A stretch of DNA of 54,778 nucleotides, from the IMG/VR virus record IMGVR_UViG_3300028400_000008, positions 1 to 54,778 of that record; one strand, written 5' to 3'. This stretch comes from a virus. Positions within the stretch are counted from its first letter, which is position 1; each line of letters begins with the position of its first letter. The notes beneath the pieces were generated by a model. The model was not told where the DNA came from, did not search any database, and saw nothing but the letters and a program-made list of their open reading frames with translations. The position numbers and the translations under genes are program-made. Below, piece by piece: positions 385-54,778 of this stretch.

Positions 385-390
385 TTGACA

Positions 391-15658: not shown

Positions 15659-17625
15659 GTTTTCTTGGTATTGTCGGGAAAAAGACTGAAACCATAGAAA
15701 GCACTGGATTCGCACCACTGCTTGGAGAACCAAAAGATACATTCAAAAGCATAGTGGTAAATGCCGTAATAAACGATATAGATATAGACGAAGCGATTAC
15801 GGATGCTATGGACTTGAAGCATCCAGTGAGCGATAAGAATTGGCAATACATTTCAAAGCTGCAATTCAAAGCGATAAATAGAGCCACCATAGAGAAGGCT
15901 CTCCAAAGAGCGGGGGTGGTTCCAGATAGAGATGAAAACGGAAATCCGATATACCAAGAAGGCAATCCACTTTTGCTTCCAGAAGCTATGCATGACATAA
16001 TGTCAAGAATATATCCAGATATAAATTGGGTCGGGAAAGTAGCAAGACTGCAATACATGGGGCAAGAGTATGATTTCAAAATAGTCGGACAAATACCAGT
16101 AGAAGTAAAAATAGATGGAAAAAGCGCAAAAATATACATAGGATATCAGGTCTATTATGAATCTGTAGAAGAGATACCAGCATTTAAAGGACCACCAAAA
16201 AAGATTCATCAAACAAGACTTGTGTACACATATTTAATGGAGCCACCAGAAGGGTTTGCTGAAATTTCATTCTTTGTGAAATCTAACGGACATTGGCTAA
16301 TTTTCGATAGCGAAGAATTTTTCGAAGACTTGCAAGATACGGATAAGTTCGTGATAGACAAGGTGGTTCCATTAAAAGTAGGCGGAGAATGGATCGCAAA
16401 GAGAAGTCTGCTGCAAAGATGTGGGATAATGAACGCTGATGAACTACAAGAACAACTTGGAAAAAACAAAGACGTTCAGATAGAATATGGAATACTTGGA
16501 ACATTTTTGCAATGGAAGATAGACACTGAAGAAGATAGATTTAAAAAATTGTTCGATAAATTGTGGTTCAAGGTTATAGATTATTACGCCCCAGATATTG
16601 GAATGAATACGATATATAAAATAGAATATGATGCCCCAGGTGGACAGAAGTTGCTATATGAGATAGAAGCAAAAACTGAAAACGACAACTTTGCAAACGA
16701 ATACTATAGGGAGATAAAAGATATATGGATAAAGAAAAACGGAATAGATCATTTCTACGGCAAAGCATTTATTGTCAAAGGAGAAAAAAGAAAAATCACT
16801 TTTATACCAAGAGCAATAACGATAGTCCTAACTGACGAAGAAAAAAAACTTTTGGACAAAGCTACTGCGCTTAGCGATACATATGTCGTGCAAAGCGGAC
16901 TTGTTGATGTTGGACCAAAAAAGTTTTTATCGAATGACGAAGCAACAGGAAGAAGATATACTACAGAAGACATAGAGAAAAGATTTTTTATTCCTATACC
17001 ATCATTGATAACAAGAGAGTTCAAATTTAAAGAATATGTTGATCTTTATCCAGCGATGTTCGGGCTTTTGTATCACACTAAACAAAAGATAACATATACA
17101 ACAATATTCGGAATAAAACAGTCAAAATTCTTCAAAGCCCTCGGGGTGGTTCTGACATTCGTATCAGCTGGAACGCTAAGCCCAGCAGCGGCTTTCGTAA
17201 TGAGTGCGACATCGATGGCGATACAAGCTGGCGTTGGAAGCGATAAAGTTAGAATGGTTGCGCAGATAGCAATGACAATATACGGACTATATCAAGGCTA
17301 TCAAGCAAGCGGACTAAATGTAAAAAACATATTCGATACACTTCAGGCCGCAATGAAGCTATACGATATATATTTGCAATATGAGCTTCAAAGTGAGCTA
17401 TCGGATTTCAGGAAATTTAAGGATGAGATAGAACAAAAGATAAAAGAGTACAAAAATGTTAGAGACATAGATGTGATGATAATAGACGATATGCTAAAAG
17501 GAAATTACGAAACATACTATTCATTCGCCACGGATATAATGTATCTCCAAGATATAATTTGGAATCAACTATTTCAAGAACAAGGAATGCCAGATGAAGA
17601 AATTGTTAGACAATTTGAAAGCTGA
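15655..17625 (+). CDS. Large virion protein with C-terminal hydrophobic region, 656 aa
   Basis: Not recognised. The soluble N-terminal 480 residues are mixed alpha/beta. Residues 490-560 hold two hydrophobic Ala/Gly-rich segments that could enter a membrane, and the C-terminus is helical and acidic. GTG start in a GTGA overlap with the upstream gene; the end overlaps the portal start by 32 bases. By position it could be a tail tube or sheath protein next to the portal, as in N4-like virions. Confidence 0.45.
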   Translation: MSFLGIVGKKTETIESTGFAPLLGEPKDTFKSIVVNAVINDIDIDEAITDAMDLKHPVSDKNWQYISKLQFKAINRATIEKALQRAGVVPDRDENGNPIYQEGNPLLLPEAMHDIMSRIYPDINWVGKVARLQYMGQEYDFKIVGQIPVEVKIDGKSAKIYIGYQVYYESVEEIPAFKGPPKKIHQTRLVYTYLMEPPEGFAEISFFVKSNGHWLIFDSEEFFEDLQDTDKFVIDKVVPLKVGGEWIAKRSLLQRCGIMNADELQEQLGKNKDVQIEYGILGTFLQWKIDTEEDRFKKLFDKLWFKVIDYYAPDIGMNTIYKIEYDAPGGQKLLYEIEAKTENDNFANEYYREIKDIWIKKNGIDHFYGKAFIVKGEKRKITFIPRAITIVLTDEEKKLLDKATALSDTYVVQSGLVDVGPKKFLSNDEATGRRYTTEDIEKRFFIPIPSLITREFKFKEYVDLYPAMFGLLYHTKQKITYTTIFGIKQSKFFKALGVVLTFVSAGTLSPAAAFVMSATSMAIQAGVGSDKVRMVAQIAMTIYGLYQGYQASGLNVKNIFDTLQAAMKLYDIYLQYELQSELSDFRKFKDEIEQKIKEYKNVRDIDVMIIDDMLKGNYETYYSFATDIMYLQDIIWNQLFQEQGMPDEEIVRQFES

Positions 17626-19480
17626 TTACGAATCCGCCAAAAGTGCGAGAAGAGATTGGGAACAGTACATAAAAACGATGCGCACATATTACAATGGTGC
17701 AACAAAACCAAGAAAAGACGGCAAAAGCAACTATGTATCAAGAGAGGTGCTAAGGGCGGTTCTATGGATAAAGCCACTGATTAAAAATCCTTTTACAAAA
17801 AATACAAAAATAATAAGAGCGAACCCAATAACACAAGATGATACCTTGATAGCTGCGCAATCAGAAAGGCTTGTAAATTATTTCTATACAAAGAAATTCA
17901 AAAGAGCGAAGTTCTTTGAGGAGCTTGCTGTAACATACGCAGTTGATGGAACCACTTTCGTTAAAACTGGATGGGAATACAAAAGCGTAAAAAAAGAGGT
18001 TGAGATTGATATAGTCGATGACAATACTGGTCAGATCATAGGACAAAAGAAGCAGGAGGTCGAGATACCAATAAGAAGTCATCCTACCGCAATAGTATGT
18101 AACAACGAAGATATTTTTATCGATCCGAATGCAAGAAGCATAGACGAAGCGAATTTCATAATCCATAGAAGAGAAGTTTCACTGTCTCAACTGCGAGAAG
18201 AGGGCATATACGAAAATCTCGACAAGATACAGATAGATGACGGTGATTCAGCATTTCCGATGAATTATGAAGACAAGGCAAGAAAAAAATTCTATATGTA
18301 TGAGTATTGGGGTAAATACGACAAGAATGGAGACGGAATTGCTGAGCCAATAGTGTGTTGTTGGGTAGATGATGTGGTGGTTCGACTTGACGATAATCCA
18401 TTCCCCGATGGAGAACCACCGTTTGTGACCGACAAGTTTGAAACAAAACTTGGAAGCAAATATGGTATGAGTATGGCCGACATTATATCAGACTTTCAGG
18501 TGGCAAAAACGAATATACTAAGGGGGATATTCAATGACATCAAGACAAGCAACTCACAACAGAAGGGGGTTCTAAAAGGAAACCTTGATAGCGTAAACTT
18601 CAGGCGATGGAAGAATGGAGAGCCATTTGAATTCAATCTATCTCCAAATGGATTCTATCAAGGAAGCTATACACAGATACCATCATATGTGTTCAATGTA
18701 TTGCAATTGGTAGATATGGACGAAAAAGCTTTGGCGAACATAAATCAAGAAGCTGGCTACGGTGCACAGGCCACATATGGGTCGAAGGCATCTAAAAGCG
18801 GACAGATGACCCCAGAGATGCTTAGAGAGTCAGACATCATAAACAATGTATCTGAGAACATCGTAAAGCCGATGATACGAAAATGGATAGCCTACGCATA
18901 TGAATTTATGGAGCCAGAGGATATCCAAAGAATAACTGGAATGCCATATCAAGATGTTCCAATAGAGTTCATAGACGGCAGAATGGATTTCGATATAACA
19001 ATATCAACTGAGCAAACAGACAATGTGAAAGCATCGAATTTGTCATTTCTGCTACAAACGCTTGGGAACAATCTCCCATTCGAACTTACAAAAACGATAA
19101 TGGCTGAAATAGCTGAACTTCAAAAAATGGATGCATTAGCTGAACAGATAAGAGGATATGAACCACAGCCAAGTGAAATAGAAATGAAAGAAAAAATGCT
19201 TGAGTTGAAACTCCTTGAGGCCTCAATTATGGAAAGATACTCAAGAGTCAAAGAGAATGAAGCCGATTACGCAATGAAGATGTCAAAGGCGAAAGAAAAC
19301 GATAGTAAAGCAAAAATGATAGACCTTGAAACGATAAGGAAAAAATACGGATTGGATTTTAAGGAGGAGCTTGCGAAGAAGGTGGTTCCAGAAAAGCTAA
19401 AAATTGACAACTATGGGCACAAGATGGCAAAATCGATACTTGGCCACGGAAAGTCAATAAGTGACACTATAACAGAATAA
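17594..19480 (+). CDS. Portal protein
   Basis: Dodecameric ring through which DNA enters and leaves the head. 628 aa, typical for podovirus portals. The N-terminus carries Trp-Glu-Gln-Tyr-Ile and a Tyr-Tyr-Asn-Gly segment as in P22/N4-like portals. The middle has Asp-Gly-Thr-Thr-Phe-Val-Lys-Thr-Gly-Trp near 116-125 and an Ile-Phe-Ile-Asp-Pro-Asn-Ala motif near 174. The C-terminal 120 residues form a charged coiled coil. It sits immediately before scaffold and capsid. ATG 17594 overlaps the preceding gene. Confidence 0.82.
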   Translation: MKKLLDNLKADYESAKSARRDWEQYIKTMRTYYNGATKPRKDGKSNYVSREVLRAVLWIKPLIKNPFTKNTKIIRANPITQDDTLIAAQSERLVNYFYTKKFKRAKFFEELAVTYAVDGTTFVKTGWEYKSVKKEVEIDIVDDNTGQIIGQKKQEVEIPIRSHPTAIVCNNEDIFIDPNARSIDEANFIIHRREVSLSQLREEGIYENLDKIQIDDGDSAFPMNYEDKARKKFYMYEYWGKYDKNGDGIAEPIVCCWVDDVVVRLDDNPFPDGEPPFVTDKFETKLGSKYGMSMADIISDFQVAKTNILRGIFNDIKTSNSQQKGVLKGNLDSVNFRRWKNGEPFEFNLSPNGFYQGSYTQIPSYVFNVLQLVDMDEKALANINQEAGYGAQATYGSKASKSGQMTPEMLRESDIINNVSENIVKPMIRKWIAYAYEFMEPEDIQRITGMPYQDVPIEFIDGRMDFDITISTEQTDNVKASNLSFLLQTLGNNLPFELTKTIMAEIAELQKMDALAEQIRGYEPQPSEIEMKEKMLELKLLEASIMERYSRVKENEADYAMKMSKAKENDSKAKMIDLETIRKKYGLDFKEELAKKVVPEKLKIDNYGHKMAKSILGHGKSISDTITE

Positions 19481-19490: not shown

Positions 19491-19757
19491 ATGGGAAACA
19501 GACTAAAACCTAAAGCCGTAGAAGCGGCAATGGCATATGAAAGAATCAAGGACAACGAAGATTTCAAGAAGGTAGTAGAATTTTATACGCAAGATGTGGC
19601 GATGGATTTCGCTGAAATGTATGCATTCAACGGAATTGATGAAACAATGCGAAAAGAGGCTGGTGAGAAGATGAGTTCTTGTTTCAATTTCAAAGCCTAC
19701 CTGCAAGAGCTTGAAAACGCAATGCAAGACTTGAGAAATGGAGAAGATGATGAGTGA
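19491..19757 (+). CDS. Small helical protein between portal and scaffold, 88 aa
   Basis: No known motif. Predicted all-helical and acidic at the C-terminus. AAGGAG lies six bases before the ATG, a good start. Its place between portal and scaffold matches the small gene between the N4 portal and its capsid-assembly gene. It overlaps the scaffold start by eight bases. Confidence 0.5.
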   Translation: MGNRLKPKAVEAAMAYERIKDNEDFKKVVEFYTQDVAMDFAEMYAFNGIDETMRKEAGEKMSSCFNFKAYLQELENAMQDLRNGEDDE

Positions 19758-20730
19758 AGAGTACAAAGATATAAATCAAGAAGCGTGGGACCTGATAGAT
19801 GAAGAGGAGCCAACGACTACTGAAGATGAAGAACAAGAAGAGGTTGTAGAAGAAGAAACTGAGGATGAAGCAGAAGAAGCTCCAGAGGGAGAGATTGAGG
19901 AAGTAACTGAATCTGAAAAAGCCAAAGAGGCAGCAGAGCTTGGGGTGGTTCCAAACCAGGAGCTAAAACCTCTCAATGCAAATGGTAGAGAAATAGCGAT
20001 AGAAAGCATTGATGAGCTATATAGAATCGCCGAAGAAGGTATCAAGTATAAGCAAATGTACGACGACTATAAAGAAGACATTGGGCTTATTGAGGCTCTA
20101 AAAGAAAATGATGTAAGCGAAGACGAAATCAATTTGCTTATCGACGCTAAATCTGGGAAGAAAGAAGCAATATCTACGCTATTAAAAAAACTTGGTGTAG
20201 ACAACCCTATGGATATCGAAGAGTCGGAAGGTGAATACACACCGCAGAACCACCGTGTGCCAGTAAGCGATATAGAGCTTAAGAAATTCGTTGAAGAAGC
20301 TCAAAGTACCGATCCAGTGGCATATACGAAATTTACAAACTTCGTAGCGAAAGAGCTTGATGATGAGAGTAAGAGAGAAATATTTTCTGACATGTCACTG
20401 CTTAGAGAGCTTTATGACAATGTGCGAAACGGCCTGATGGAAGCTGTGGCTCCAATCTTCATGAAGAAGAAATTGCTCAACGATAGCAGAAGGGCAATTG
20501 ACATTTATGCCGAAAGTGTCAAAGAATACATTGAGAAGATCAAAGCCCAAAAAGAGAGGCAGATCGAAGAGGAAGCCGAAAAGAAAAAGCAAAAAGCTAA
20601 AAAAATCAAAAAGGCTTCCATAGGAAAGTCGGCTAACACGACTTCTCAGCCAGAAGATGTCAATGACATCGACTTTATGTCGTTATCGGACGAAGAGTTC
20701 GAGAAATATTACCGACAAATTGTCGGATAG
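19750..20730 (+). CDS. Putative scaffolding protein
   Basis: 326 aa. The first 60 residues are extremely Glu/Asp-rich, the middle is helical, a Lys-rich coiled coil spans about 255-300, and the C-terminus has Asp-Ile-Asp-Phe-Met-Ser-Leu-Ser before an acidic helix. This charge layout and the position directly before the major capsid gene are typical of phage scaffolds. ATG 19750 is preferred over 19738 and 19747 because GGAG is then six bases upstream. Confidence 0.65.
   Translation: MSEEYKDINQEAWDLIDEEEPTTTEDEEQEEVVEEETEDEAEEAPEGEIEEVTESEKAKEAAELGVVPNQELKPLNANGREIAIESIDELYRIAEEGIKYKQMYDDYKEDIGLIEALKENDVSEDEINLLIDAKSGKKEAISTLLKKLGVDNPMDIEESEGEYTPQNHRVPVSDIELKKFVEEAQSTDPVAYTKFTNFVAKELDDESKREIFSDMSLLRELYDNVRNGLMEAVAPIFMKKKLLNDSRRAIDIYAESVKEYIEKIKAQKERQIEEEAEKKKQKAKKIKKASIGKSANTTSQPEDVNDIDFMSLSDEEFEKYYRQIVG
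20712..20726 (+). terminator. Weak hairpin at the scaffold stop
   Basis: CCGAC-AAATT-GTCGG lies over the last codons of the scaffold gene, followed by ATAGTTTTC. The stem is short and the T-tract weak. It may only lower read-through or serve as an mRNA processing site before the highly expressed capsid gene. Confidence 0.25.
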
Positions 20731-20764: not shown

Positions 20765-21952
20765 ATGGTAGAGTACAACAATGGTAACACCACTATCGGT
20801 GTTCAAAACCAGACATTCTTCCTGAGAACAGCTCTCAAGGCAGTAGACGAGAATTTCTCTTTTGCAAAGTTTGCAGACAGAAGAGAAATGATGAAGCAAA
20901 AAAGTGGGAATGAGTTTAGAGTCCCTGTGTATTACTATGGTATTACAAGAGATGTAGTCGATAACAACGGAAATTACAATCCTACTGCAAACGGCTATAT
21001 GGCCGAAAGAAATGCAGCCGATGTTCAAGCGCAACTGAACAACCTTTTCCTTACTCAAGAGGGAACCACCACTGGAATTACAGAAATTCCTTCTTTGAGA
21101 AAAGTCACATTTAAAACAACCCTGAAGAAGATTGCTGGTATCAGCTATCTTACAGAAGACGCTGAAACATATATGGAAGACAACATTCGTACTTTGGAAA
21201 TCGAGAACCTATCAGTTGACATGAACCAAAGAAACGATGACCTAATTCAGATGGATTTGCTCTCAAGCACATTCAGAGTGTATGGTGGAGATGCTACGGC
21301 AAGAGGCGAGCTTGGTGGTTCCGATGATGCTCAAGCGACAAAATACAGCCTAAGCAAAAAGCTACTCAGCAAGCTCTATACAGTGCTAATCAAAAACAGA
21401 GCGAAGCCTGTCGCATCGATGATTACTGGAACTACACGAATCGGTACGAAGCCTATTCCTGCTGGATTCTATATCGCAGTAGGCGCAGACCTCGCTGGAG
21501 CACTTAGAGATGATAGCCTCTTCCCTGATTTTGTTCCAGTAGAGCAATATCCAGATCAAAGCAATATCTTCAAGATGGAAGGCGCAGAGGAGATCGGAAC
21601 TCTCGGAAACTTCAGATTCATCTATGTAGAGAAAATGGTAAACTACGGAAATACTGGTGCATTAGTTGGAGGGACTGGGGCTAATCCATCAGAAACTTGT
21701 CAAAGCGGCGATGATGGAAGCGGCAAATATCGATACACAGTATATCCGTTCATCACAATCTCAAGAGATGCCTTCGCAACAGTCGGCCTGATGGGTAAAA
21801 ACAAGTTCAACATCTTCACAAGATGGCCTGATCAAATCGACAGCGGCAACCCAATTGGCGAAAAAGGATATGTGGCATACAAGTTTAGATATGCAAGCGT
21901 AATCACACGACCAGAAACATTGGCTGTAGGCGAAGTAGTCTGCCCAATCTAA
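20765..21952 (+). CDS. Major capsid protein, N4 gp56 family
   Basis: Builds the icosahedral shell. 395 aa, the size of the N4-gp56 family. The N-terminal part has Phe-Ala-Asp-Arg-Arg before a Lys-Ser-Gly segment. A long E-loop/spine region with Glu-Ile-Pro-Ser-Leu-Arg near 113 is followed by Tyr-Leu-Thr-Glu-Asp-Ala, and the C-terminal third has Gly-Phe-Tyr-Ile-Ala-Val-Gly and the Pro-Phe-Ile-Thr-Ile-Ser segment usual there. A leader of 34 bases with AGAGG precedes it, and a strong octamer-pair hairpin follows. A cleaved propeptide is not evident. Confidence 0.8.
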   Translation: MVEYNNGNTTIGVQNQTFFLRTALKAVDENFSFAKFADRREMMKQKSGNEFRVPVYYYGITRDVVDNNGNYNPTANGYMAERNAADVQAQLNNLFLTQEGTTTGITEIPSLRKVTFKTTLKKIAGISYLTEDAETYMEDNIRTLEIENLSVDMNQRNDDLIQMDLLSSTFRVYGGDATARGELGGSDDAQATKYSLSKKLLSKLYTVLIKNRAKPVASMITGTTRIGTKPIPAGFYIAVGADLAGALRDDSLFPDFVPVEQYPDQSNIFKMEGAEEIGTLGNFRFIYVEKMVNYGNTGALVGGTGANPSETCQSGDDGSGKYRYTVYPFITISRDAFATVGLMGKNKFNIFTRWPDQIDSGNPIGEKGYVAYKFRYASVITRPETLAVGEVVCPI

Positions 21953-24404: not shown

Positions 24405-27400
24405 ATGGATTTGTTTGATATCTACAAAAGAACAAAAAAGCAAAGAAGCGCAATAAGCCAGGATGTAAAGAAATCAATAGACTCAAATAATGACTTGATG
24501 AGCCTATTCGCAACATTTAGTGGAGCGAAAGAAGAAGGTACTTCGGCAAACGACAGCGCATTGTTTGACGATGGAATGATGCTCAGAACCACCGCAGGAG
24601 TTGCACCAGAAATACTTGAAAAAGTAAATGACCGTGAAGAGAGCAGACAGCTTGCAGAGCAAGCGTATCAAGAGCTTGTGGATAAGTATGGTGACAGCAT
24701 AGACGATATACCAGAGCTGAAGATACAGAAAGACGCTCTTGAAACTATCATCAAAAATCCAGATTTAGAACCTAACGAAAACTATGCAAAAGCTCTTGAT
24801 GAGCTTGTGAATATGGCTGTCGGTGGTTCTAGCAAGGAAGAGCTTGCAAGCGAAGGTCTTGTCGTAGGAGATAAAGAGGCCTATCAGGAAGGAAAAGGGT
24901 TCTTCGATTACAGCCTTGGGGAAAGTACTCCTATGACTGAGTTACAAGAAGCACAGGCTGGAATGGACACTGGAAACTTGATAGATGCGCTATGGCAAGG
25001 TACTAATGCGTTGGCCGATACAGTGCTTGCGCCATGGAGAGAGAACGATAAAGAGAGAAAAGAAGAGAGGATAGAGACCTCAAGGATGCATCAAGCGTCA
25101 AGACCTACTCAATTTGTAGAAGAAAAAAGCAAAGAGTATTACGACAAGTATGGTGTAGTAGGCGGCATCAAAGAGATGGCGAAAGACCTGTTTGAGAATT
25201 ACGGAGTAAGCGGAGTCGTACGAATGGTATCTGAGGCTACCGTTGAATCTCTGCCAGCCATGATTGCTGCCGTAGGAGCTTTGGCAGCAACGAAGAACCC
25301 GTCAACTGCGATTTCTTTATTGGGATCCGCTGGGCTTGGCGACTATCTTGCTGGCAAGTCGAGAGAAATCTACGACGAGCAAAAAGAGAAGGACTGGACT
25401 AAGGCTATAACTGGAGGGGTTCTAAGCGGTGCGCTCGATGTAGTAGGAGCGGAGGCTCTTGCTGGTGGAACCATTCTAAGAAGAATACTTGGGAAGAGGG
25501 CTGGTGAAGAAGTAGCCAAAAAACTTGGAGAGAAAGGTGCAGCCGAAACAGCGGCACTGTTCGGTGCTGGAGTCTTAGGTGACGCTGGAATAGAAGTGAC
25601 CACAGAGAACCTTCAAAACTTCCTCGAAGAATATGGCAAGACAGGCAATATAGAAGAGGCGATACAAAAAGCAAAAGAGCAAGCCGTTGGGACTACAATA
25701 GAAACGGCAGGTATGTCAGTTCCACTGGCAGCCATGTCGCCAGAAGGAGCAAGAAAATTCCATAGTGAAAAAATGGATATGATAGGCACGGCTAAGAAAG
25801 AGCAAGAACAAGAAAAAATAAATCAATATAAAAATGCCGTAGAGGGAATAGAACCACCTCAGAGCATAGAAGAGATAAAAATTGCCGAAAGGAAAGTCGC
25901 TCCAACGATTCAATACATTAGAGCGAATCCAGAAGGCAAAGAAGAGGCGATATCTCATCTTGAGAGCCACCTCAAGGAAATCGGGAAAAATGACGATGAA
26001 ATTGAATATACGATAAACAGCGTATTGGATGCAGCTGAAAAGCTGGGACCTATTTACAAAGATGAGAATGGTGGTTCGGTAAACAATATAGAAATGCCAG
26101 AAACTGAAGAGGCCGAAGAAGAAGATGTCGATATAAACGACCTTGAAGCAAGAATAAAGTCTGATACTGGGATTATAGGAACTCACGAGCTTGAGCACGC
26201 TATGAAGCTTGTCGATGAAGGCAAATACACACCCGAGGAGGTGGTTCAGAAAATTGCAAATGAGAATGATAAAGAAGTATTCAAAGAAGTGTATGCAATT
26301 GAACCACCAAAGCAGAGCGGTTCAGTTCCCACTGACGAAGTAGCACAAAACATAAAGAACGATCTACTAAGAAGATGGAATAAATTTAAAACGGCCCAGA
26401 ATGCACAAGACAAAGCAAAAAGATTGTTCGATGTAGCGTTTAGAATGCCTACAATAGCATTCAAAAAAATCGATCCAAAGTTCGTTCCAAGCATAGATAC
26501 AAAACTTGTTAAAAGAATAGTATCTCAAGCAAAAAATACCAATGAAGCAAAAGCGCTTGTAGAAAAACACAATATAAAAAATCCAGTGCTTAGAAACATA
26601 ATAATCGAACTTACAGCTGAAAAAGCCATTAGAGATAGAATGCTGTCCGAGCTTAAGAAAGAAAAAGAGAACGGAACAATTGATATAAGCGATGACGATA
26701 TAGTCAATATCAGAAAAGACTCCAACAAGGTCATCGAGCACATCATAGACAATTTGCACAATCCAATGAAATCTGAACATACAGATTTCGAGAACCACAC
26801 AAGAGAGATACTTGCAAAAATATACAAGCAGAAAAAAGGCGAAATAGGTAGAGGGATAGCGAAAGTATCTGAAATCGCAAAACTGAAGAAGCCGAAACAG
26901 GATATTGATCAGGAAATAGCGGACATAGAGAATGATATAAAAACACTTAAAAAAGTTGGAATGATAGATGAAGCCAAAAAGCTTGAGGTAAAGAAACAGA
27001 GGCTATTGAAAGAAATAGAACAAAAAAACAAAGCTCCAAAGCTGCAACAAGAAATAGGGAAGCTCAAAGAAATAGAAAAAAGTTTAAAACACAAAGAAGC
27101 AAAACAGGAGATACGAAAAAAAATAGAGCAGCTTGAAGCACAATTTAGTGAACCAAAGCAAGCTGCGACAAAAGATGCGACAAAAACTGAGAATAAGAAA
27201 AGAAGATATAGACTTGAGAGCGGCCATATAGTATCTGTAGATGACAGCAAGGTGGTTCTAAATATTGACGGAAAAAACATAAACCTCAACGATGAAAAAG
27301 AGCTTATAGGGAATAAAAAGCACCTGGAGAAAGCTGGATTGGTAAAAAAACTGAACGAAGACGAAGAACATATATATACAATAACTCAATCTGGATTAAT

Positions 27401-30400
27401 GAAAAAAGTATTGACGAGAAAAGGCGAACACTATTCAAGAGCTGGTGAGACTGATGAAAACAAAGCTAAAAAGCAAGAAAAAGCCTTCGTGTCCAGCAAG
27501 ATAAAGAGAATAAACGAAAAAGGTGAAGCCGCAAAAATAGACGATATAGAGGTAACAAATAAAGAGATAAAAAGGATAATGTCTGACTGGGATGTGAGGC
27601 CAACGATAGGAAAAGCAGAAGATAGAATTATTATGAGACTGTCTTCTAAGAATTTGAAAACAAAATATGGAGAAATAAGGATACAAAACCCAATTGCAGA
27701 CCTTTTGTCTATAAAGAACAAAAACGGAGAACCAGCCATAGGCAATCTGGATAAACCACTAAAAGACGCAATGGCTCTTGTCTATAGGAAAATAGCTACA
27801 TTCAACCCAGACTATAAAAGGCTTGTAGATGTTTTTGGAGACGGGGCGAGACCAGTATTCGAAGCCATACTTGAAAATGGAGTACCGCTATTCGCAATAA
27901 AAGAAGAAGCGAAAAATATTGTTGGTAAAGTTAAATTTGAAAATGGATTGAGCCTGTTCGACATATCAAAAAAAGTAGTATCCGATACTGATTACCTTGA
28001 CGACTCTTTTGCCCAGCATCTCACATCGATAGCCGTAAAAGCATTAGTACACAAAGGTTTTGTCAGGGAATCGAAAGTCGAAATAAATGGCAAACAGCAA
28101 GCGTTTTACGAGATAATGGAAAACAGATCAGAGTTATTGGACAGGGCAAACGAGCTATTTGACGAATTGAGGATAGAAAGCGAAATAAGGGAACCTGAAC
28201 CGCCTGGGATGGGCAGAGCTTCAAGCAAAACCGAAATTGGAAAAGTTGAAAAAGGAACTGCGCAAGAAGAGATTTTTACCGCTATCAAAAATATGTCAAG
28301 AGTCAAGTTTAAATTCAACGACGAAATTGGAAGCGAATCAAACAAATACGCAAAGATGTTTTTCGAACATATAAAAGACAAAGATATAGCCGATATGTTC
28401 GTAGACGAAGCACCGACCCTTACTACAAGAGTAAACAAAGAAATTGCAAGAGAAAATATAGAAAGAATGTACAAAAGGATAAAAGAGACATATTCAAAGC
28501 AAAAAGAGATGAGCTTTAGCTGGAAGATATACTCAAACTGGAGAGCTGGAATAACATCGAACACGATAAACTATCAGCTTGAGAAAATTTCAAGAGGATT
28601 GGTAAGTCCAGAAAAATCTATCACATACATCAATGGAACCACCGAACGAGAACTCAAAAAAAATATGGAAAAGTTCCTATTCGACAGAAATGGAAATTTG
28701 AAAGATGTACCACTAAAGGTGCTTGCGTTCAATATGGGTATCAAGATAGATAGGCTGGACAATGATACGATAAGAGAACAATTTTCAAAGATGTTTGAAA
28801 TCACTCCAGATGGGGTGGTTCCAAGAAAAGGCTTCAAGCAAGCATTCAGATTTGCCAAAAATGGACTTGTGCTTGGTATGGATATGTGGAAAAGCAAATC
28901 ATCAGATAAAGCAGCATTGAAGAAGATAGCAAAAGAGCACGAAAAAGTTATGACAATAACTGCGCTGAGAGACATAGCTCTCATGGATGCAGTACTAAGA
29001 GGAGAAATAAAACCATATAAAGTAAAAGGCAATGTGGCTCTATATGCAAAGATGGAAATAGACGCAAGCACATCGGCAAGCATACTGTCAAGACTGCTAA
29101 ACGGAACAACATACGCAAAATCGAAAGATATCATGATGGCTGGAGGCGTGGTTCTTGACATCAAGTCGATACCAGAAGCCTTAAAAGGCTCAGGATTGCT
29201 ATTGAAGGGCACAAAAAAAATAACTGACATTTATATACTTGCCAATGAAAAGCTTGCAAGAATAATAGAGAAAGACAATAGCCTTGCGGCAAGGCTGATA
29301 AGACAATTCAATAGAGACAATATGAAAAAAGCCATTCAGGAGATAGAGTATGGTGCTGGAGAAAAAGAGTTTAAGCATCAACTTGCAAGAGAAGCGTTCA
29401 AGATTTTAGAGAAGTACATAGGAGAGTCGAAAAGCAAAGCATTTGCAACTCTTATGGCGCTGAAGCCATATTTTCCAGACGCAAGAATAGTGTACATAAG
29501 GAATGGAAAAGAGGAGAGCAAAAAATTAAAAGACATCACATCTTTGGATGGAATAGACAATAAAGATATAAGTATAGAGAACTTACATGCTCCGCTACTC
29601 AAACTGTTTGAAAAAACAATCACAAAAAAACAGTTTGAGCAATTCGTAAGAGAGATAATGCCAACAAGATTGGTGCTTCAAGAATTGACGAACATAATAG
29701 GCAAAATAGTTGAAGCTAAAAGAAAGAATGCAAATCCAAAATGGAAAACTATCAAAGACCTGAAAGAATCTGCTAAAAAAGAGATAGGATATATAGGGTT
29801 CTATAATCTTGGAGTGTTTCCATTCAGAATATCTAATGAAGATGCTGCAAAAACATCTTTCGTGCTTCCTGTCGTAGATAAGAGTGAGATAAAATTTGCA
29901 AAAAAAACCGTTCCGTATATTGAAGACAGAGCATCGAAATTACTTGCATCAATGACTCACTCAATAGATTCACTTGTCTTTTTCAGATCGCTAAACAACA
30001 CAAAAGCATACGACAGGCTTCAATACATATATGATGCTGCAATCATAGGATATGACGAGCAGACTCTAAATGATTTCTCAATGGAATACAACAAGAATGT
30101 CATAGAGGAAACGGCTAAAAACTCACATATAGTCGAATTTTCAAAATACATACTTGAAAACTACAACAAGGAGCTTTTGAGCAAAAACGACCTGATGAAA
30201 GTGAAGAAAGCACTATTGTGGTCAAAAAAAGCGAAAACTAAGCTATTTGAGAAAATAGACGCAATGCAGCATTTTGTCTATTCTCCTCTTGGCAAAAACG
30301 ATGAACTGTTCGCATACAAGCCAGATGACAAAAAGAAGTTGATTGAAGATATAGGAAAGTCATATGATCAGGTGTTGAACCACCAGTTGCTCAAAGACAT

Positions 30401-33400
30401 AGATATTGCCGAAAAGAAAAAGAATACAGAAAAAGATGTCAGATCGAAATCTATCGAACTTGGAGAGAGCATAAGAAAGACTCTACTTGGTGAAGAGATT
30501 TTGGATAATGATGGTTTAGCTAAGTATCTAAGACAAATGGTAAGCGAAAAAGATGAATATGCGAACCACCTTATTGACATAGTTGAGACGCTTGAGGACA
30601 ACCTGATAGGAAATGAAGTTATAAAACTTGTAAAGTACAAAGGAGACAAATTTAGCTTAGGCTCAATTCAGAAAGATGGAGACATGTACACTATCGAGGT
30701 GGTTCTATCCGACAAAGACATAGTAACATCGGATATAGAAGTATTCACGCACGAGCTATTGCACATAGTCATAGACAATACGCTCCCCCTCAGTCAAGAG
30801 CACAAACTAAAAATCAAGAAAGCAATAAACACCACAATAAAGGCTCTACAGGAAAAATATGGCAAAGGAAACGAATGGATGGCATTTCTGCCAAAACAAT
30901 ACAACGATGAAGATGTAGAAGTGGCAAAATCCGTTGCAGCTTACGCCTTGTTCGGAGAAGGAACCACCAAGCACGAACACGAATTTTTAATCTATGCTTT
31001 GACAAACAAAAACTTTATAGAGAACATCAAGGATATAGACATAGATTTGAGACTGTTCAAAAAGGATAAATCGTCATCATATCTTGACGATTTGATAAAC
31101 ATCGTAAAAGAACTTCTAAACAAGCTGATAGGGCTTGTAAGAAAAAACAATATGAAGGCAAACGAGTATGCAGTCAAACTATATAACGAACTTGCCGATG
31201 CATATTATAGAATAGGGAATGGAGCGTCTACAAGATATGCGTTTATGCCCAAAGCCGCAAGAATAGTCGCAAAAATAGATTCCATAACATCGCTTATGAG
31301 AAAAGAGAGCGACAAATACGCAAAACCGTTAATGAATCTTGCAACGAAACTTGCAGTAGAGCCAGCCGTTAAAGTCATGGAACAGATATGGAAAGAGACG
31401 GAAATATATCGTGATATGATAGACAACGAGCAATCAAGGGCATTCTTCCAGATATTCAAACTGAATAAAGATGTGATGGAGAAGGATTTCTACAGAATAA
31501 AATCCATAGCGCAGGCAGCAAAGGAATCGGCAAAAGAAAAAGTCGATGCGGTATATGGAACAAGACTGAAAGAACTCCTAAAGAACTTCACGCCAAAAGA
31601 GAGAGAAGCACTCAATATGATAATAGCTTCAAGCGGGTTGTATGGTCTTGATTTAAAAGATAAAGATGAACTTGTCGAGTTGATAAAAAACAGAAAAAGT
31701 GAGATTGAAAAACTTGAGTCGGTTATAAACGACGATGGTGTAAAATCCCAAATAGAAGGTTTGGTGGTTCTAAAGACCGAAGGGAAGGTTGTGAACCACC
31801 GCCAAATGCTGAATGCCTACGCTATTCACAAACAACTGTTCAGGGACAAAACAAAGAGCAAAATTCCAGAAGCGATAATCTACAAGCTCATAACATTAAA
31901 AATCCTTGATAGGATTGACGATATCGAAAGAATAGTCGAAAAGGATGCAGGCGCAATATTCAGGACATACAAGTTCTATAAAAATATGGAAAAAATATTC
32001 AGAAAGAAAAACGAACTTAACCCGCTGCACGAAATACACGGATACATAAAGACAAAACCAAAACCATTCGAAACGGTTGCATGGGTCAAGACAAATGAAA
32101 TACCTAAGGGTGCGACTGTGCTGGGTGGTTCTGTGAGGGTAAAAGGCGAAAACTATGTTAGGGTAAAAATAAAGGACTATACTCAAAGCTATACACAGGG
32201 AGCATTAGGCATAAAAAACCTATCGCATATGGGAACCACCTTCAGTGCAGACGAGATAGTAACGGCAAAAGACCACTATCAGGGCGAAGGCTATGCGCTC
32301 CTCCCAATATTGAGCGACAAAGGAAAGATAATAGGCTGGAGGTTGAACGACATAGGCAGGCCAAAAGGCGACATAACAGAGAATATGGCATACACGATAT
32401 CAGATATGTTCCTAAGAGACAAAACGAGCGAATACAACAAAAAGGTAATCGATCTTCTATTCAGAGACTACTTGATAAATGAAGGGAAAAGGAAATATAT
32501 AGAGATATCACCAGAATCGCATTCTGAGCTTTGGATGATGATACCGAAGCAGACAAGAAACTACCTTGCAAGTAAATATGGAGAAAGAAAGCTGTTCGTA
32601 AGGCCAGAGCTTATGTATGACATATTCGGCTATCAAGACCCATATCTATTCAAGAACCACCGTGCGTTGGCATGGATGCAAAAGATAGTGAAAGATATAG
32701 TAGAAATGGCCAAAATGAAGATGACGGTACTGAATGTTGATACAATTATGTCAAATGCACAATCTAATTACGATACTCTCATCAAGTATGGAATGGATCC
32801 GATAGATGCGGCAAGAAGAATGAAAGAGGCGTGGTTCCTTGCTGACCAATATGAAGAGGATTATCTTGAGAGCTTAAATATGTATTTCGATATGGCATCT
32901 GGAAAGCCTATAAATCTGAAAGAGTATAAGTATAGGCTTAGAAGCAAAGAGGAGAACCCCATATCGATAATATACAAAGAAGGGATGATGACTCCAGTCA
33001 TAGACGATATCAATGTAATAGAAGCCGATAACAAAAACGAGATAAGAAGAATGATAGAGGATAAATTCCTGACTAAGCTAAACGAAAAGATGAGAAAAGC
33101 GGTAAAAAGCGCATATCCAACGGAAGAAACACAAGCTTTCAAAATTGGAATGAAGCTGTTTCAGCGTGGAGATATGGTCGCTAAGTATGCACTATATACT
33201 TGGCTAAGAGAGCAAGGGATTCCATATAGAGAGGCGATAGAGACCGCTGACGAAGCGTTCGTAAACTACTCTATCACTGAACATCCAGTGCTTAAGTATG
33301 CATCTGATGTGGGTGCATTGATTTTCAATAAGTATCTATTCCTTGCCTGGAAAGGTATGGCTAGAATGATGAAGCTTGCTCCTGGAAGATTTATAGGAAC

Positions 33401-33545
33401 GGAAGCTGCACAGGGCTTCAAAAAAGGATATGAAGAGGCTACGGACCTATATCTACACAGAAGCTTGCAAGACATAGTTGAACCACGCATTCTATCGCCA
33501 ATGGAAGCTGGGAAAACGCTGTTTCAACCAGTTTTTATGGCATAA
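24405..33545 (+). CDS. Giant virion protein with T7/N4-type RNA polymerase and zinc peptidase regions
   Basis: 3,046 aa. An Ala/Gly-rich hydrophobic region lies at about 265-455, and a HELEH motif at 594-598. The polymerase region is defined by WRAG near 1380 (T/DxxGR-like), Asp1553 in an Asp-Ala-Ser-Thr-Ser context (motif A), Arg1637-x3-Lys1641-x7-Tyr1649-Gly (motif B, exact spacing of T7), His-Ser-Ile-Asp at 1852-1855 and Asp1877 (motif C, preceded by Tyr where T7 has His). A second HELLH (2116-2120), followed by a Glu-Phe-Leu segment, looks like a zincin. The last 450 residues resemble large polyvalent-protein domains. As I recall, N4 gp50 also carries a central polymerase in an injected protein of 3,500 aa. 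Role inferred: ejected RNA polymerase for early genes. Confidence 0.75.
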   Translation: MDLFDIYKRTKKQRSAISQDVKKSIDSNNDLMSLFATFSGAKEEGTSANDSALFDDGMMLRTTAGVAPEILEKVNDREESRQLAEQAYQELVDKYGDSIDDIPELKIQKDALETIIKNPDLEPNENYAKALDELVNMAVGGSSKEELASEGLVVGDKEAYQEGKGFFDYSLGESTPMTELQEAQAGMDTGNLIDALWQGTNALADTVLAPWRENDKERKEERIETSRMHQASRPTQFVEEKSKEYYDKYGVVGGIKEMAKDLFENYGVSGVVRMVSEATVESLPAMIAAVGALAATKNPSTAISLLGSAGLGDYLAGKSREIYDEQKEKDWTKAITGGVLSGALDVVGAEALAGGTILRRILGKRAGEEVAKKLGEKGAAETAALFGAGVLGDAGIEVTTENLQNFLEEYGKTGNIEEAIQKAKEQAVGTTIETAGMSVPLAAMSPEGARKFHSEKMDMIGTAKKEQEQEKINQYKNAVEGIEPPQSIEEIKIAERKVAPTIQYIRANPEGKEEAISHLESHLKEIGKNDDEIEYTINSVLDAAEKLGPIYKDENGGSVNNIEMPETEEAEEEDVDINDLEARIKSDTGIIGTHELEHAMKLVDEGKYTPEEVVQKIANENDKEVFKEVYAIEPPKQSGSVPTDEVAQNIKNDLLRRWNKFKTAQNAQDKAKRLFDVAFRMPTIAFKKIDPKFVPSIDTKLVKRIVSQAKNTNEAKALVEKHNIKNPVLRNIIIELTAEKAIRDRMLSELKKEKENGTIDISDDDIVNIRKDSNKVIEHIIDNLHNPMKSEHTDFENHTREILAKIYKQKKGEIGRGIAKVSEIAKLKKPKQDIDQEIADIENDIKTLKKVGMIDEAKKLEVKKQRLLKEIEQKNKAPKLQQEIGKLKEIEKSLKHKEAKQEIRKKIEQLEAQFSEPKQAATKDATKTENKKRRYRLESGHIVSVDDSKVVLNIDGKNINLNDEKELIGNKKHLEKAGLVKKLNEDEEHIYTITQSGLMKKVLTRKGEHYSRAGETDENKAKKQEKAFVSSKIKRINEKGEAAKIDDIEVTNKEIKRIMSDWDVRPTIGKAEDRIIMRLSSKNLKTKYGEIRIQNPIADLLSIKNKNGEPAIGNLDKPLKDAMALVYRKIATFNPDYKRLVDVFGDGARPVFEAILENGVPLFAIKEEAKNIVGKVKFENGLSLFDISKKVVSDTDYLDDSFAQHLTSIAVKALVHKGFVRESKVEINGKQQAFYEIMENRSELLDRANELFDELRIESEIREPEPPGMGRASSKTEIGKVEKGTAQEEIFTAIKNMSRVKFKFNDEIGSESNKYAKMFFEHIKDKDIADMFVDEAPTLTTRVNKEIARENIERMYKRIKETYSKQKEMSFSWKIYSNWRAGITSNTINYQLEKISRGLVSPEKSITYINGTTERELKKNMEKFLFDRNGNLKDVPLKVLAFNMGIKIDRLDNDTIREQFSKMFEITPDGVVPRKGFKQAFRFAKNGLVLGMDMWKSKSSDKAALKKIAKEHEKVMTITALRDIALMDAVLRGEIKPYKVKGNVALYAKMEIDASTSASILSRLLNGTTYAKSKDIMMAGGVVLDIKSIPEALKGSGLLLKGTKKITDIYILANEKLARIIEKDNSLAARLIRQFNRDNMKKAIQEIEYGAGEKEFKHQLAREAFKILEKYIGESKSKAFATLMALKPYFPDARIVYIRNGKEESKKLKDITSLDGIDNKDISIENLHAPLLKLFEKTITKKQFEQFVREIMPTRLVLQELTNIIGKIVEAKRKNANPKWKTIKDLKESAKKEIGYIGFYNLGVFPFRISNEDAAKTSFVLPVVDKSEIKFAKKTVPYIEDRASKLLASMTHSIDSLVFFRSLNNTKAYDRLQYIYDAAIIGYDEQTLNDFSMEYNKNVIEETAKNSHIVEFSKYILENYNKELLSKNDLMKVKKALLWSKKAKTKLFEKIDAMQHFVYSPLGKNDELFAYKPDDKKKLIEDIGKSYDQVLNHQLLKDIDIAEKKKNTEKDVRSKSIELGESIRKTLLGEEILDNDGLAKYLRQMVSEKDEYANHLIDIVETLEDNLIGNEVIKLVKYKGDKFSLGSIQKDGDMYTIEVVLSDKDIVTSDIEVFTHELLHIVIDNTLPLSQEHKLKIKKAINTTIKALQEKYGKGNEWMAFLPKQYNDEDVEVAKSVAAYALFGEGTTKHEHEFLIYALTNKNFIENIKDIDIDLRLFKKDKSSSYLDDLINIVKELLNKLIGLVRKNNMKANEYAVKLYNELADAYYRIGNGASTRYAFMPKAARIVAKIDSITSLMRKESDKYAKPLMNLATKLAVEPAVKVMEQIWKETEIYRDMIDNEQSRAFFQIFKLNKDVMEKDFYRIKSIAQAAKESAKEKVDAVYGTRLKELLKNFTPKEREALNMIIASSGLYGLDLKDKDELVELIKNRKSEIEKLESVINDDGVKSQIEGLVVLKTEGKVVNHRQMLNAYAIHKQLFRDKTKSKIPEAIIYKLITLKILDRIDDIERIVEKDAGAIFRTYKFYKNMEKIFRKKNELNPLHEIHGYIKTKPKPFETVAWVKTNEIPKGATVLGGSVRVKGENYVRVKIKDYTQSYTQGALGIKNLSHMGTTFSADEIVTAKDHYQGEGYALLPILSDKGKIIGWRLNDIGRPKGDITENMAYTISDMFLRDKTSEYNKKVIDLLFRDYLINEGKRKYIEISPESHSELWMMIPKQTRNYLASKYGERKLFVRPELMYDIFGYQDPYLFKNHRALAWMQKIVKDIVEMAKMKMTVLNVDTIMSNAQSNYDTLIKYGMDPIDAARRMKEAWFLADQYEEDYLESLNMYFDMASGKPINLKEYKYRLRSKEENPISIIYKEGMMTPVIDDINVIEADNKNEIRRMIEDKFLTKLNEKMRKAVKSAYPTEETQAFKIGMKLFQRGDMVAKYALYTWLREQGIPYREAIETADEAFVNYSITEHPVLKYASDVGALIFNKYLFLAWKGMARMMKLAPGRFIGTEAAQGFKKGYEEATDLYLHRSLQDIVEPRILSPMEAGKTLFQPVFMA

Positions 33546-33569
33546 TGACGAACGGGAAGGAGGTGACAT

Positions 33570-40893: not shown

Positions 40894-41012
40894 TTGCACC
40901 TTTCCTTCGCCCTTCTCAAAGCCGTTTCGTAGTTGGGTGCATATACGCTTATTTCGTTTCCGTTGCATACAAAGAACCAAATATTGTTCTTTTCGCCTAA
41001 GAAATGAATCAT
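40890..41012 (-). CDS. Small protein between the two nuclease paralogues, 40 aa
   Basis: Begins in a TAATG overlap with the active nuclease and ends in an ATGA overlap with the degenerate one. The product has two strands with Trp-Phe-Phe-Val-Cys and a basic helix. Tight coupling on both sides supports expression. Function unknown. Confidence 0.55.
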   Translation of the reverse strand: MIHFLGEKNNIWFFVCNGNEISVYAPNYETALRRAKERCK

Positions 41013-41752
41013 TACCACATCTCCATTGTTGTCGTATGTTTTGGATTGAAGTATTTGCACTTGTCACTATATGCGCAATATTGCATACATCTTACTGGAA
41101 TAGACTTTCCTCTCACTTTCCTGAACCACAAATCTTTGCATTGAGGTGGTTCTATTCCTAATGTTTCAAATTGTTCTATCTGTGAAGTTATTTCGTAAAA
41201 TTTCTTTTCTATCTCATCATTAGATACGAGCGGTATTTGAATTACTTTCAGAGATGGCTTATTTTCCATTTTCCTAAAATCATATCCTCCATCTTTGAGA
41301 AACGCTATGAGGTACATACTCATTTCTTTGTCATGAAGTTTTTCATACAGATAGCGATATACATTGAGTTGCCACACATATTGATGGTCTGGCTCTTTTT
41401 CAACTCTTTCTATCGTATAGCTTTTTGTCACTTTTATATCGCATATTGCATCTTGCAAAACGATGTCTGCCATACCTGTAAGCTTCCAGCCATTTGGCAT
41501 CTCAAGCTCCATCGAAACCTCTGTTTCAGCCTCGTCTTTCAGTATCTGCTCCATACCGAAATGAACCACCGTACCCAATGTATCTTGGCCTATTTCCGTT
41601 TTTTCAGGCACTCCATATTTGTATCTAAGCCATATTTGCAAAATATCGTTACCAAAATCTGATGCAGATATGGCTTTAATTCCAGCCTCAGTATTCCCTT
41701 GATATTGCGTTTTCTCAAGTATTTTTTCCGTAATCCATTTTTCAAGATTCAT
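41012..41752 (-). CDS. RecB/Cas4-type PD-(D/E)XK exonuclease
   Basis: 246 aa. His64 in Val-Val-His-Phe, Gly-Met-Ala-Asp96, Asp105-Ile-Lys107 and Gln128 in Gln-Leu-Asn-Val-Tyr are the RecB-family active-site residues in order. Four Cys near the C-terminus (C-x16-C-x3-C-x5-C) could hold an iron-sulphur or zinc cluster. It likely resects DNA ends to feed the Sak4-type annealing system encoded upstream. Confidence 0.75.
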   Translation of the reverse strand: MNLEKWITEKILEKTQYQGNTEAGIKAISASDFGNDILQIWLRYKYGVPEKTEIGQDTLGTVVHFGMEQILKDEAETEVSMELEMPNGWKLTGMADIVLQDAICDIKVTKSYTIERVEKEPDHQYVWQLNVYRYLYEKLHDKEMSMYLIAFLKDGGYDFRKMENKPSLKVIQIPLVSNDEIEKKFYEITSQIEQFETLGIEPPQCKDLWFRKVRGKSIPVRCMQYCAYSDKCKYFNPKHTTTMEMW

Positions 41753-43465: not shown

Positions 43466-43694
43466 TTGTTCTCCTTGTTTCATTTAGTTTCAAAACCAAT
43501 TCCAGACAATCTTCTGGAAAACCATAATAGTGATACACGACAGAACCACCTTTGTTGAATAAAGACAATTCAGCCATATCATCGCTAAAAAAGCTTACAC
43601 TATATTCTGGATTTGGCATCGTTTTAAAAAGCTCCAAAATCCTTTCTTTGTTTTTTGGCAGATGGATCACATTTGATTCCGTTGTCTGTAACAT
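43389..43694 (-). CDS. Hypothetical protein overlapping the Sak4-like gene, 101 aa
   Basis: The first 70 residues look coding (Ser-Phe-Phe-Ser-Asp-Asp-Met-Ala-Glu-Leu). The last 25, inside the Sak4 frame, are basic and may be translated read-on. A 77-base overlap is long for this genome. Alternatively a frameshift shortened or lengthened the end. Confidence 0.4.
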   Translation of the reverse strand: MLQTTESNVIHLPKNKERILELFKTMPNPEYSVSFFSDDMAELSLFNKGGSVVYHYYGFPEDCLELVLKLNETRRTNGNTDKRSRVQRNGKIEVFEELIDI

Positions 43695-54730: not shown

Positions 54731-54778
54731 TTAATTTCACCCACCAACAATAGGTACTCCTGGAACCACAGGGGGGGG
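54652..54778. repeat. Direct terminal overlap, copy 2
   Basis: Exact copy of bases 1-127; see the first entry. The unique genome is 1-54651. Confidence 0.9.

What the first reader, a model, noticed from the sequence alone, without database searches (positions are those of the whole stretch)
24405..33545. N4-type virion RNA polymerase hidden in a 3,046-aa protein
Motif B Arg-x3-Lys-x7-Tyr-Gly has exactly the T7 spacing; motif A Asp1553, His-Ser-x-Asp 1852 and motif C Asp1877 follow in the right order, with 25 residues between the last two (28 in T7). The polymerase lies in the same region of the chain as in N4 gp50, as I recall it. Motif C has Tyr in place of the usual His. The gene neighbourhood also matches N4. 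A 54-kb phage with vRNAP but without recognisable N4 RNAPII or DNA polymerase would be a reduced N4-like lineage.
Basis: partly seen in the sequence, partly recalled or inferred. Interest (0 to 1): 0.85.

Follow-up and report, generated by a model that had tools for sequence, protein, structure and literature searches.

The report
Virion RNA polymerase of pared-down phage
The 3,046-residue protein is a very divergent relative of the RNA polymerase that phage N4 carries in its virion and injects into its host, here in an apparently complete 54.65-kb phage genome that has none of the other polymerase genes such phages normally carry.

Summary
Window 24405-33545 (+) is one 3,046-aa ORF. Its C-terminal part matches the virion RNA polymerase (vRNAP) family directly; its middle matches the catalytic domain of N4 gp50 (hhalign E = 6e-9, shuffles far lower). 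Motifs A, B and C and six further residues invariant in 42 other vRNAPs are present. A model of residues 980-2015 has N4 mini-vRNAP as its best PDB match (Foldseek E 4e-17). The N4 C1-domain HExxH is kept.

The first and last 127 bases are identical, the mark of a closed assembly, so the genome is probably complete at 54,651 bp. It has no family-A DNA polymerase and no RNAP1/RNAP2, which 23 of 25 other vRNAP records have. A closed 61.5-kb relative also lacks the DNA polymerase but keeps RNAP1/2. This is a new, deeply branching variant of a known kind; it fails two published Schitoviridae criteria (three RNA polymerases, 59-80 kb). Activity, virion location and promoters are untested; no N4-type promoter hairpin was found. 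A lineage-specific octamer (GGTGGTTC, 96 copies, about 1 expected) is unexplained.

The parts
24405..33545 (+). Virion RNA polymerase (N4 gp50-like), 3,046 aa, one ORF
   Evidence: phrog_2206 E 1.6e-49; hhalign to 11 vRNAPs E 9e-38 and 6e-9; gene order as in N4-like phages
24405..27254 (+). N-terminal region (aa 1-950); aa about 275-445 resembles the membrane-associated N-terminal domain of N4 gp50 only weakly
   Evidence: hhalign aa 300-445 E 0.005, 0.028 in a variant run; low confidence
27342..30449 (+). RNA polymerase domain as modelled (aa 980-2015); well-predicted core about aa 1300-2015
   Evidence: AlphaFold2 pTM 0.72; Foldseek best PDB hit N4 mini-vRNAP 3c46, E 4.4e-17
29055..29084 (+). 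Motif A, E1551-I-D1553-A-S-T-S-A-S (Gly to Ala at 1554 and 1558)
   Evidence: D1553 aligned with N4 D1556 and invariant in 42 others
29313..29354 (+). Motif B, R1637-x3-K1641-x7-Y1649-G1650
   Evidence: R and K invariant in 42 others, Y/F at 1649
29958..29969 (+). H1852-S-I-D1855, 25 residues before the motif C Asp
   Evidence: H in 27 of 42 others, Q in 13
30024..30041 (+). Motif C, Y-I-Y1876-D1877-A-A
   Evidence: D1877 invariant in 42 others and aligned with N4 D1948
30750..30764 (+). HExxH (H2116-E-L-L-H2120) of the C1 domain
   Evidence: Aligned with N4 IHELVH; conserved HExxH in N4 C1 reported in PMC12633501
31212..33524 (+). C2 part of the C-terminal domain (aa 2270-3040), the best conserved part
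   Evidence: phrog_2206 E 2.4e-33 for 32682-33401; tblastn to 271 phage records
22847..24402 (+). Gene just upstream, at the place of N4 gp51 (ejection protein); reads as 22847-23020 plus 23278-24402 in another frame, joined across an A10 run at 22992-23001
   Evidence: Frames read; identity with gp51 by position only
20765..21952 (+). Major capsid protein (N4 gp56-like)
   Evidence: phrog_1357 E 9e-48; N4 MCP tblastn 2e-23
19738..20730 (+). N4 gp57-like protein (annotated tape measure)
   Evidence: phrog_2120 E 6e-36
17594..19480 (+). Portal protein (N4 gp59-like)
   Evidence: phrog_1216 E 2e-119; tree
1052..2581 (+). Large terminase (N4 gp68-like)
   Evidence: tblastn with N4 gp68 E 2e-107, 41%
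385..1080 (+). N4 gp69-like protein (small terminase in PMC10654107)
   Evidence: phrog_2109 E 1e-33; tblastn with N4 gp69 E 2e-17
45033..47093 (-). Primase (N4 gp43-like)
   Evidence: phrog_2135 E 1e-62; N4 gp43 tblastn 4e-28
42794..43483 (-). Sak4-like protein (N4 gp44-like)
   Evidence: phrog_2872 E 3e-59
41958..42575 (-). Single-strand DNA-binding protein (N4 gp45-like)
   Evidence: phrog_378 E 4e-14; N4 SSB tblastn 2e-6
41012..41752 (-). PD-(D/E)XK exonuclease (N4 gp42-like)
   Evidence: PF12705 E 1e-7; N4 gp42 tblastn 2e-5
47942..49483 (-). DEAD/ResIII-type helicase; separated from the primase only by a 216-aa gene, so there is no DNA polymerase gene between helicase and primase, where N4 has it
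   Evidence: PF04851 E 2e-18
1..127 (.). Left copy of the exact terminal direct repeat (closure of the assembly)
54652..54778 (.). Right copy of the exact terminal direct repeat

Best explanation
The protein is a virion-associated single-subunit RNA polymerase homologous to N4 gp50. It has an N-terminal region, a T7-like right-hand polymerase domain (about aa 980-2015), a small HExxH-bearing C1 part (about 2050-2250) and a large helical C2 part (about 2270-3040). By homology with N4 (inferred, not shown here), a few copies are packaged, ejected with the DNA, and start early transcription in the cell before any phage gene is expressed; the C-terminal part holds the polymerase in check until it is released. 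Specific to this phage: its probably complete 54.65-kb genome codes for no RNAP1/RNAP2 and no DNA polymerase of a known family, so vRNAP is its only recognisable RNA or replicative DNA polymerase. Its later genes must be read by vRNAP or the host RNA polymerase. Its DNA is most likely copied by the host replicase, with the phage's own primase (gp43-like), helicase, SSB and Sak4-like protein directing it. Shown: homology, catalytic residues, predicted fold, gene order, end repeat, missing genes. Inferred: packaging, ejection, early transcription, use of host polymerases.
For: phrog_2206 E 1.6e-49. hhalign to 11 vRNAPs E 9e-38 and 6e-9 with all catalytic residues aligned, controls far lower. 10 of 11 universally invariant columns kept. 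Predicted structure matches N4 mini-vRNAP first and vRNAPs of other phages in BFVD. HExxH aligned with the N4 C1 domain (PMC12633501). N4-type neighbourhood. Exact 127-b terminal repeat; the relative G025 is closed by 127 b as well. No DNA_pol_A in window, G025 or G026, present in 22 other vRNAP contigs, phage PT11-V19 and sister G028. No RNAP2 in the window, present in G025, G028, weakly G026, and 23 of 25 other vRNAP records; no tblastn hit of DNAP or RNAP1/2 from the window's own kin. The portal tree puts the window in a clade with L290-L293 (100/99), apart from N4/DSS3phi2 and the Alteromonas phages.
Against: The polymerase domain has the lowest profile score of all compared (23.5 bits; PT11-V19 29, G026 35, G025 52, the other complete IMG/VR vRNAPs at least 86), and both motif A glycines are alanines, so activity is not certain. 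No N4-type hairpin promoter was found in the last 2.1 kb plus the first 0.4 kb (2 hairpins, 1.2 expected). The structure model used an alignment of other vRNAPs, so it is not wholly independent of the homology. The N-terminal match is weak. Proteins too divergent for profile search could hide a DNA polymerase, though no unassigned early-strand ORF is larger than 252 aa.
Confidence: 0.88

Rival explanations
1. The genome is incomplete or falsely closed: a segment of 5-15 kb with RNAP1/RNAP2 and DNA polymerase is missing, and the phage is an ordinary though divergent schitovirus.
For: The contig ends lie in the early region, where N4 and relative G025 carry RNAP1/2; the window has about 5.6 kb between helicase and gp69, G025 about 13.8 kb. 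All IMG/VR contigs are assemblies.
Against: First and last 127 b are identical and occur only there; an exact overlap of one assembly word (127) marks a simple cycle, and a longer repeat would not give equal ends. The closed relative G025 also lacks DNA polymerase. The helicase-primase interval, where N4 has its DNA polymerase, is intact and holds only a 216-aa gene.
Confidence: 0.1
2. The domain is a degenerate polymerase kept as an ejection or structural protein, no longer able to make RNA.
For: Lowest profile score of the set; motif A D-G-x-T-N-G is D-A-S-T-S-A; no promoter hairpin found.
Against: The catalytic Asp residues, motif B Arg and Lys, and 10 of 11 universally invariant columns are intact; relatives G025 and PT11-V19 also have Ala after the motif A Asp; the fold is predicted intact.
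Confidence: 0.06
3. A T7-like RNA polymerase unrelated to N4 gp50 was inserted into a different giant virion protein.
For: Single-subunit RNA polymerases share motifs A to C; the hmmscan matches to the vRNAP family that were located lie outside the catalytic core.
Against: Domain order, the specific vRNAP residues (R1380, R1397, D1608-x-Y1610, N1896) and the C1/C2 domains all match gp50; the best structural hits are vRNAPs, not T7.
Confidence: 0.02
4. Replication does not use the host replicase: a PrimPol-like activity of the gp43-like primase, or an unrecognised phage polymerase, copies the genome. (This concerns the second half of the best explanation only.)
For: Primase, SSB, Sak4-like protein and exonuclease are kept and well conserved (59-79% to L157) while DNA polymerase is not found in three genomes.
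Against: The primase has about the N4 gp43 length, with no extra polymerase domain; many phages without their own polymerase use host Pol III (established knowledge).
Confidence: 0.1

Closest known systems
N4 gp50 vRNAP (Escherichia phage N4; PDB 3c46, 2po4, 9pnr)
   Same: Domain order, catalytic residues, HExxH in C1, C2 domain, place in the gene order
   Different: 3,046 instead of 3,500 aa; about 17% identity; motif A Gly to Ala; no N4-type hairpin promoter found; no partner RNAP1/2
Schitoviridae (Wittmann et al. 2020, PMC7650795)
   Same: Terminase, portal, MCP, gp57, gp42, gp43, gp44, gp69 and vRNAP relatives
   Different: 54.65 kb instead of 59-80 kb; one RNA polymerase gene instead of three; no DNA polymerase, gp24 or gp25 detected
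Alteromonas phages PT11-V19, R22Y, AD45 (best portal hits among phage records)
   Same: Best portal identity among phage records (up to 39.5%); PT11-V19 has the same order terminase-portal-gp57-MCP-RNA polymerase
   Different: 68-104 kb; PT11-V19 has DNA polymerase, a second RNA polymerase and a 2,082-aa vRNAP preceded by a separate 1,000-aa ORF
Uncultivated IMG/VR contigs L290-L293, L297 (G027), L302 (G025), L303 (G026)
   Same: Portal 40-46%, MCP 50-57%; G025 shares the replication genes, lacks DNA polymerase and is closed by 127 b
   Different: G025 and G028 keep RNAP1/2, G026 a fused form, G028 a DNA polymerase; in G025 and G027 the polymerase ORF is preceded by a separate large ORF

Membership tests
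N4 gp50-type virion RNA polymerase | Single-subunit right-hand RNA polymerase domain with motifs A, B and C | tested here: met
N4 gp50-type virion RNA polymerase | C-terminal C1 with HExxH and large C2 domain | tested here: met
   feature described in PMC12633501
N4 gp50-type virion RNA polymerase | N-terminal membrane-associated domain | tested here: inconclusive
   hhalign E 0.005-0.03 only
N4 gp50-type virion RNA polymerase | Recognition of hairpin promoters on ssDNA | tested here: inconclusive
   no N4-type hairpin in the early region; the recognition sequence may differ
N4 gp50-type virion RNA polymerase | Packaged in the virion and ejected | not testable with these tools
   needs virions
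Schitoviridae (PMC7650795) | Three RNA polymerase genes | tested here: not met
   only vRNAP; RNAP1/2 not found
Schitoviridae (PMC7650795) | Genome of 59-80 kb | tested here: not met
   54,651 bp, ends overlapping by 127 b
Schitoviridae (PMC7650795) | Seventeen conserved proteins | tested here: not met
   gp42, 43, 44, 50, 56, 57, 59, 68, 69 found; gp15, 16, 24, 25, 39 not found; gp52, 54, 67 without significant sequence match
Schitoviridae (PMC7650795) | Podovirus morphology | not testable with these tools
   uncultivated
Schitoviridae (PMC7650795) | Linear genome with defined ends | tested here: inconclusive
   the assembly is closed; physical ends unknown
T7-like single-subunit RNA polymerases | Asp in motif A, Arg/Lys/Tyr in motif B, Asp in motif C | tested here: met
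   structural matches to T7 and mitochondrial RNAP

The most novel reading that the evidence does not exclude
A lineage of N4-type phages is giving up its own polymerases step by step: DNA polymerase is gone in at least two closed genomes (54.65 and 61.5 kb), and in the window RNAP1/2 too, leaving the injected vRNAP as the only phage RNA polymerase for the whole infection, with the host replicase recruited by the phage primase-helicase-SSB set. The iterated, lineage-specific octamer (GGTGGTTC, TTGGTACT, GTTGGTTC, GTTGGATC) would be a recognition site of that phage-encoded machinery.
Probability: 0.2. Interest if true: 0.72.

Novelty: new variant of a known kind. Interest (0 to 1): 0.52.

Why it matters
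A vRNAP together with RNAP1/2 and an own DNA polymerase has been taken as the defining set of N4-like phages; a metagenome survey used the DNA polymerase as a hallmark and counted only genomes with all seven hallmark genes as high quality (PMC10654107). Closed genomes with vRNAP but without DNA polymerase, one also without RNAP1/2, suggest that vRNAP plus the virion genes is the persistent core and the rest can be lost, and that such surveys would leave this group out. It makes a direct question testable: can a single injected RNA polymerase, with the host's, run a whole infection?

Tried and rejected
Close relatives by sequence alone: megablast and tblastn of the polymerase domain in phage records gave nothing, nor did a one-sequence scan of IMG/VR with the vRNAP or the portal; profile and octamer routes worked. 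PDB by sequence gave only chance hits. PT11-V19 'RNA polymerase' does not match the window's polymerase region by BLAST but does match the vRNAP profile (E 5.7e-9). DNA_pol_A and RNA_pol Pfam models on the window: none (the RNA_pol control was empty, so RNAP2 was tested again with phrog_2051, and tblastn). N4-type hairpin promoters: not found. Sigma-70 scan: no more than in shuffles. Host search by inverted octamer pairs in bacterial genomes: scattered hits at chance level. Literature: no paper found on N4-like phages without DNA polymerase or on the octamer.

Full report
What was claimed.

The observation. The ORF and every residue named are there. The C-terminal third is recognised directly: PHROG family 2206, virion RNA polymerase, E = 1.6e-49, with the best stretch at 32682-33401, and 271 phage records match by tblastn. 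The polymerase part is much more diverged: no tblastn hit in 50,697 phage records. A profile of 11 known vRNAPs aligns with the single window sequence at E = 9e-38 (aa 2050-3030) and E = 6e-9 (aa 1350-2247), and in the second alignment D1553, Y1649-G1650 and D1877 fall on the catalytic residues of N4, with R1637 and K1641 at the N4 spacing (D559, R666, K670, Y678, D951 of mini-vRNAP); MAFFT alignments put all of them in the same columns. The residue numbers of N4 are from my own knowledge and were checked against the fetched sequence. Controls: score 55.0 for aa 1250-2000 against at most 22.7 in 30 shuffles and 23.6 for the reversed sequence. Against 42 non-redundant IMG/VR vRNAPs, 11 columns are invariant and the window agrees in 10. 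The exception is the glycine after the motif A aspartate (alanine here, as in G025 and PT11-V19). Tyr before the motif C aspartate has precedents: N4 itself has Phe.

Structure. AlphaFold2 on aa 980-2015 with those 42 homologues gave pTM 0.72, with a confident core from about aa 1300 on. Foldseek against the PDB ranks ten N4 vRNAP chains first (3c46, E 4.4e-17), then yeast and human mitochondrial and T7 RNA polymerases; BFVD gives vRNAPs first. The model was built with an alignment of vRNAPs, so it supports but does not independently prove the homology.

Domain plan. The cryo-EM study of N4 gp50 (PMC12633501) describes an N-terminal domain, RNAP (1007-2101), C1 (2124-2375) with HExxH, and C2 (2376-3500), whose C-terminal domain inhibits the polymerase. 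The window keeps the order, and H2116-E-L-L-H2120 aligns with the N4 motif. The N-terminal match is weak (E 0.005-0.03).

Neighbourhood. Relatives of N4 gp69, gp68, gp59, gp57, gp56, gp50 on one strand and gp42, gp45, gp44, gp43 on the other are present in N4-like order. Portal best hits among phage records are Alteromonas phages PT11-V19, R22Y and AD45 at 36-40%.

Is the genome complete? The first 127 bases equal the last 127 exactly and occur nowhere else. 127 is a usual largest word of metagenome assemblers (own knowledge), and a relative found later, G025 (61,649 b), is closed by 127 bases too. A repeat longer than the word would not give identical ends, so false closure is unlikely. Unique length is 54,651 bp, GC 37.3%.

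What is missing. No DNA_pol_A, no RNAP2 by profile, and no hit with DNA polymerases of G028, PT11-V19, AD45 and N4 or RNAP1/2 of G025, G028, G026, PT11-V19 and N4; N4 gp24, gp25 and gp37 gave nothing. Of 25 other vRNAP records, 23 have RNAP2 and 23 have DNA polymerase; the exceptions by RNAP2 are contigs of 46.0 and 62.6 kb and by DNA polymerase contigs of 49.8 and 50.9 kb, possibly fragments. No unassigned ORF on the early strand exceeds 252 aa, so a polymerase of usual size cannot hide there. In N4 the DNA polymerase lies between helicase and primase; here that interval holds one 216-aa gene.

The lineage. The octamer described below led to IMG/VR relatives that protein scans had missed: L157 (replication genes 59-79% identical) and L108 (portal 27%). 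Portal and MCP profiles then gave L290-L293 and L296-L303. The portal tree groups the window with L290-L293 (100/99) apart from N4/DSS3phi2 and from AD45/PT11/R22Y. G025, closed, has vRNAP and RNAP1/2 but no DNA polymerase; G026 (73.5 kb, its two ends lie in the vRNAP gene) has a fused RNAP-like ORF and no DNA polymerase; G028 (36 kb, a fragment) has both. So the window is the most reduced of these, and absence of DNA polymerase is shared by three.

How it most likely works. By homology: packaged, ejected, transcribing early genes. What follows is inference: without RNAP1/2, later genes need vRNAP or the host enzyme; without DNA polymerase, the host replicase is most likely used, directed by phage primase, helicase and SSB. 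No N4-type hairpin promoter was found in the early region, although the same scan does find a hairpin of the N4 promoter type (AAGAAGC-TCC-GCTTCTT) in N4; a divergent polymerase may use other hairpins.

Relation to known families. Works like N4 gp50: very likely. Member of the gp50 family: yes by the polymerase and C-terminal features tested. Member of Schitoviridae as defined in 2020 (PMC7650795): two stated criteria, three RNA polymerases and 59-80 kb, are not met, nor is the full core set. It is better called a related lineage. The survey PMC10654107 kept only genomes with all seven hallmarks, DNA polymerase among them, as high quality, so this group would be left out.

An unexplained by-product. 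GGTGGTTC occurs 96 times against 1.03 expected from trinucleotides, on both strands, 3.5 per kb between genes and 1.6 per kb inside them. Relatives have their own version: TTGGTACT 128 times in G026 (4.7 expected), GTTGGTTC 60 in G027 (1.5), GTTGGATC 52 in G025 (1.9), TCTGGTTC in L292/L293. N4 has a milder ACTGGTTC excess (48 against 7). The shared shape is TGG-[TA]-[TA]-C. A primase or other phage-factor site is a guess; a host property (Chi- or uptake-like) is not excluded.

Noticed in passing
whole window, e.g. 21957/21970, 41931/41947, 47113/47127: Octamer GGTGGTTC/GAACCACC occurs 96 times against about 1 expected, on both strands, in genes and between them, with some close inverted pairs; relatives carry other versions (TTGGTACT 128 times in G026, GTTGGTTC 60 in G027, GTTGGATC 52 in G025, TCTGGTTC in L292/L293). 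Function unknown.
   Followed up: partly
L007 and L101 (phage N4): N4 itself has a milder excess of ACTGGTTC (48 against 7 expected), so an iterated TGGTTC-type word may be wider than this lineage; codon effects not excluded.
   Followed up: partly
L310:881-6178 and L310:6190-13584 (G025); L317 (G027, contig 30971-35161 and 35165-37513); L005:29487-38741 (PT11-V19): In these relatives the vRNAP appears as two adjacent ORFs, one upstream without recognisable domain and one with the polymerase domain; the window has a single ORF. That the upstream ORF is the N-terminal domain is inferred from size and position.
   Followed up: partly
22847-24402, A10 run at 22992-23001: The gene upstream of vRNAP (place of N4 gp51) reads in two frames joined at a run of ten A: assembly error or transcriptional slippage.
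   Followed up: partly
G025 (L308-L311), 61,649 b: Second closed genome (127-b end repeat) with vRNAP, RNAP1 and RNAP2 but no family-A DNA polymerase.
   Followed up: yes
35566-36465 (-): ThyX-like flavin-dependent thymidylate synthase with a zinc-ribbon-like N-terminal stretch.
   Followed up: no
10627-10977 (+): Peptidase M15-type endolysin of only 116 aa.
   Followed up: no
39018-39398 (-): MazG-like nucleotide pyrophosphohydrolase.
   Followed up: no
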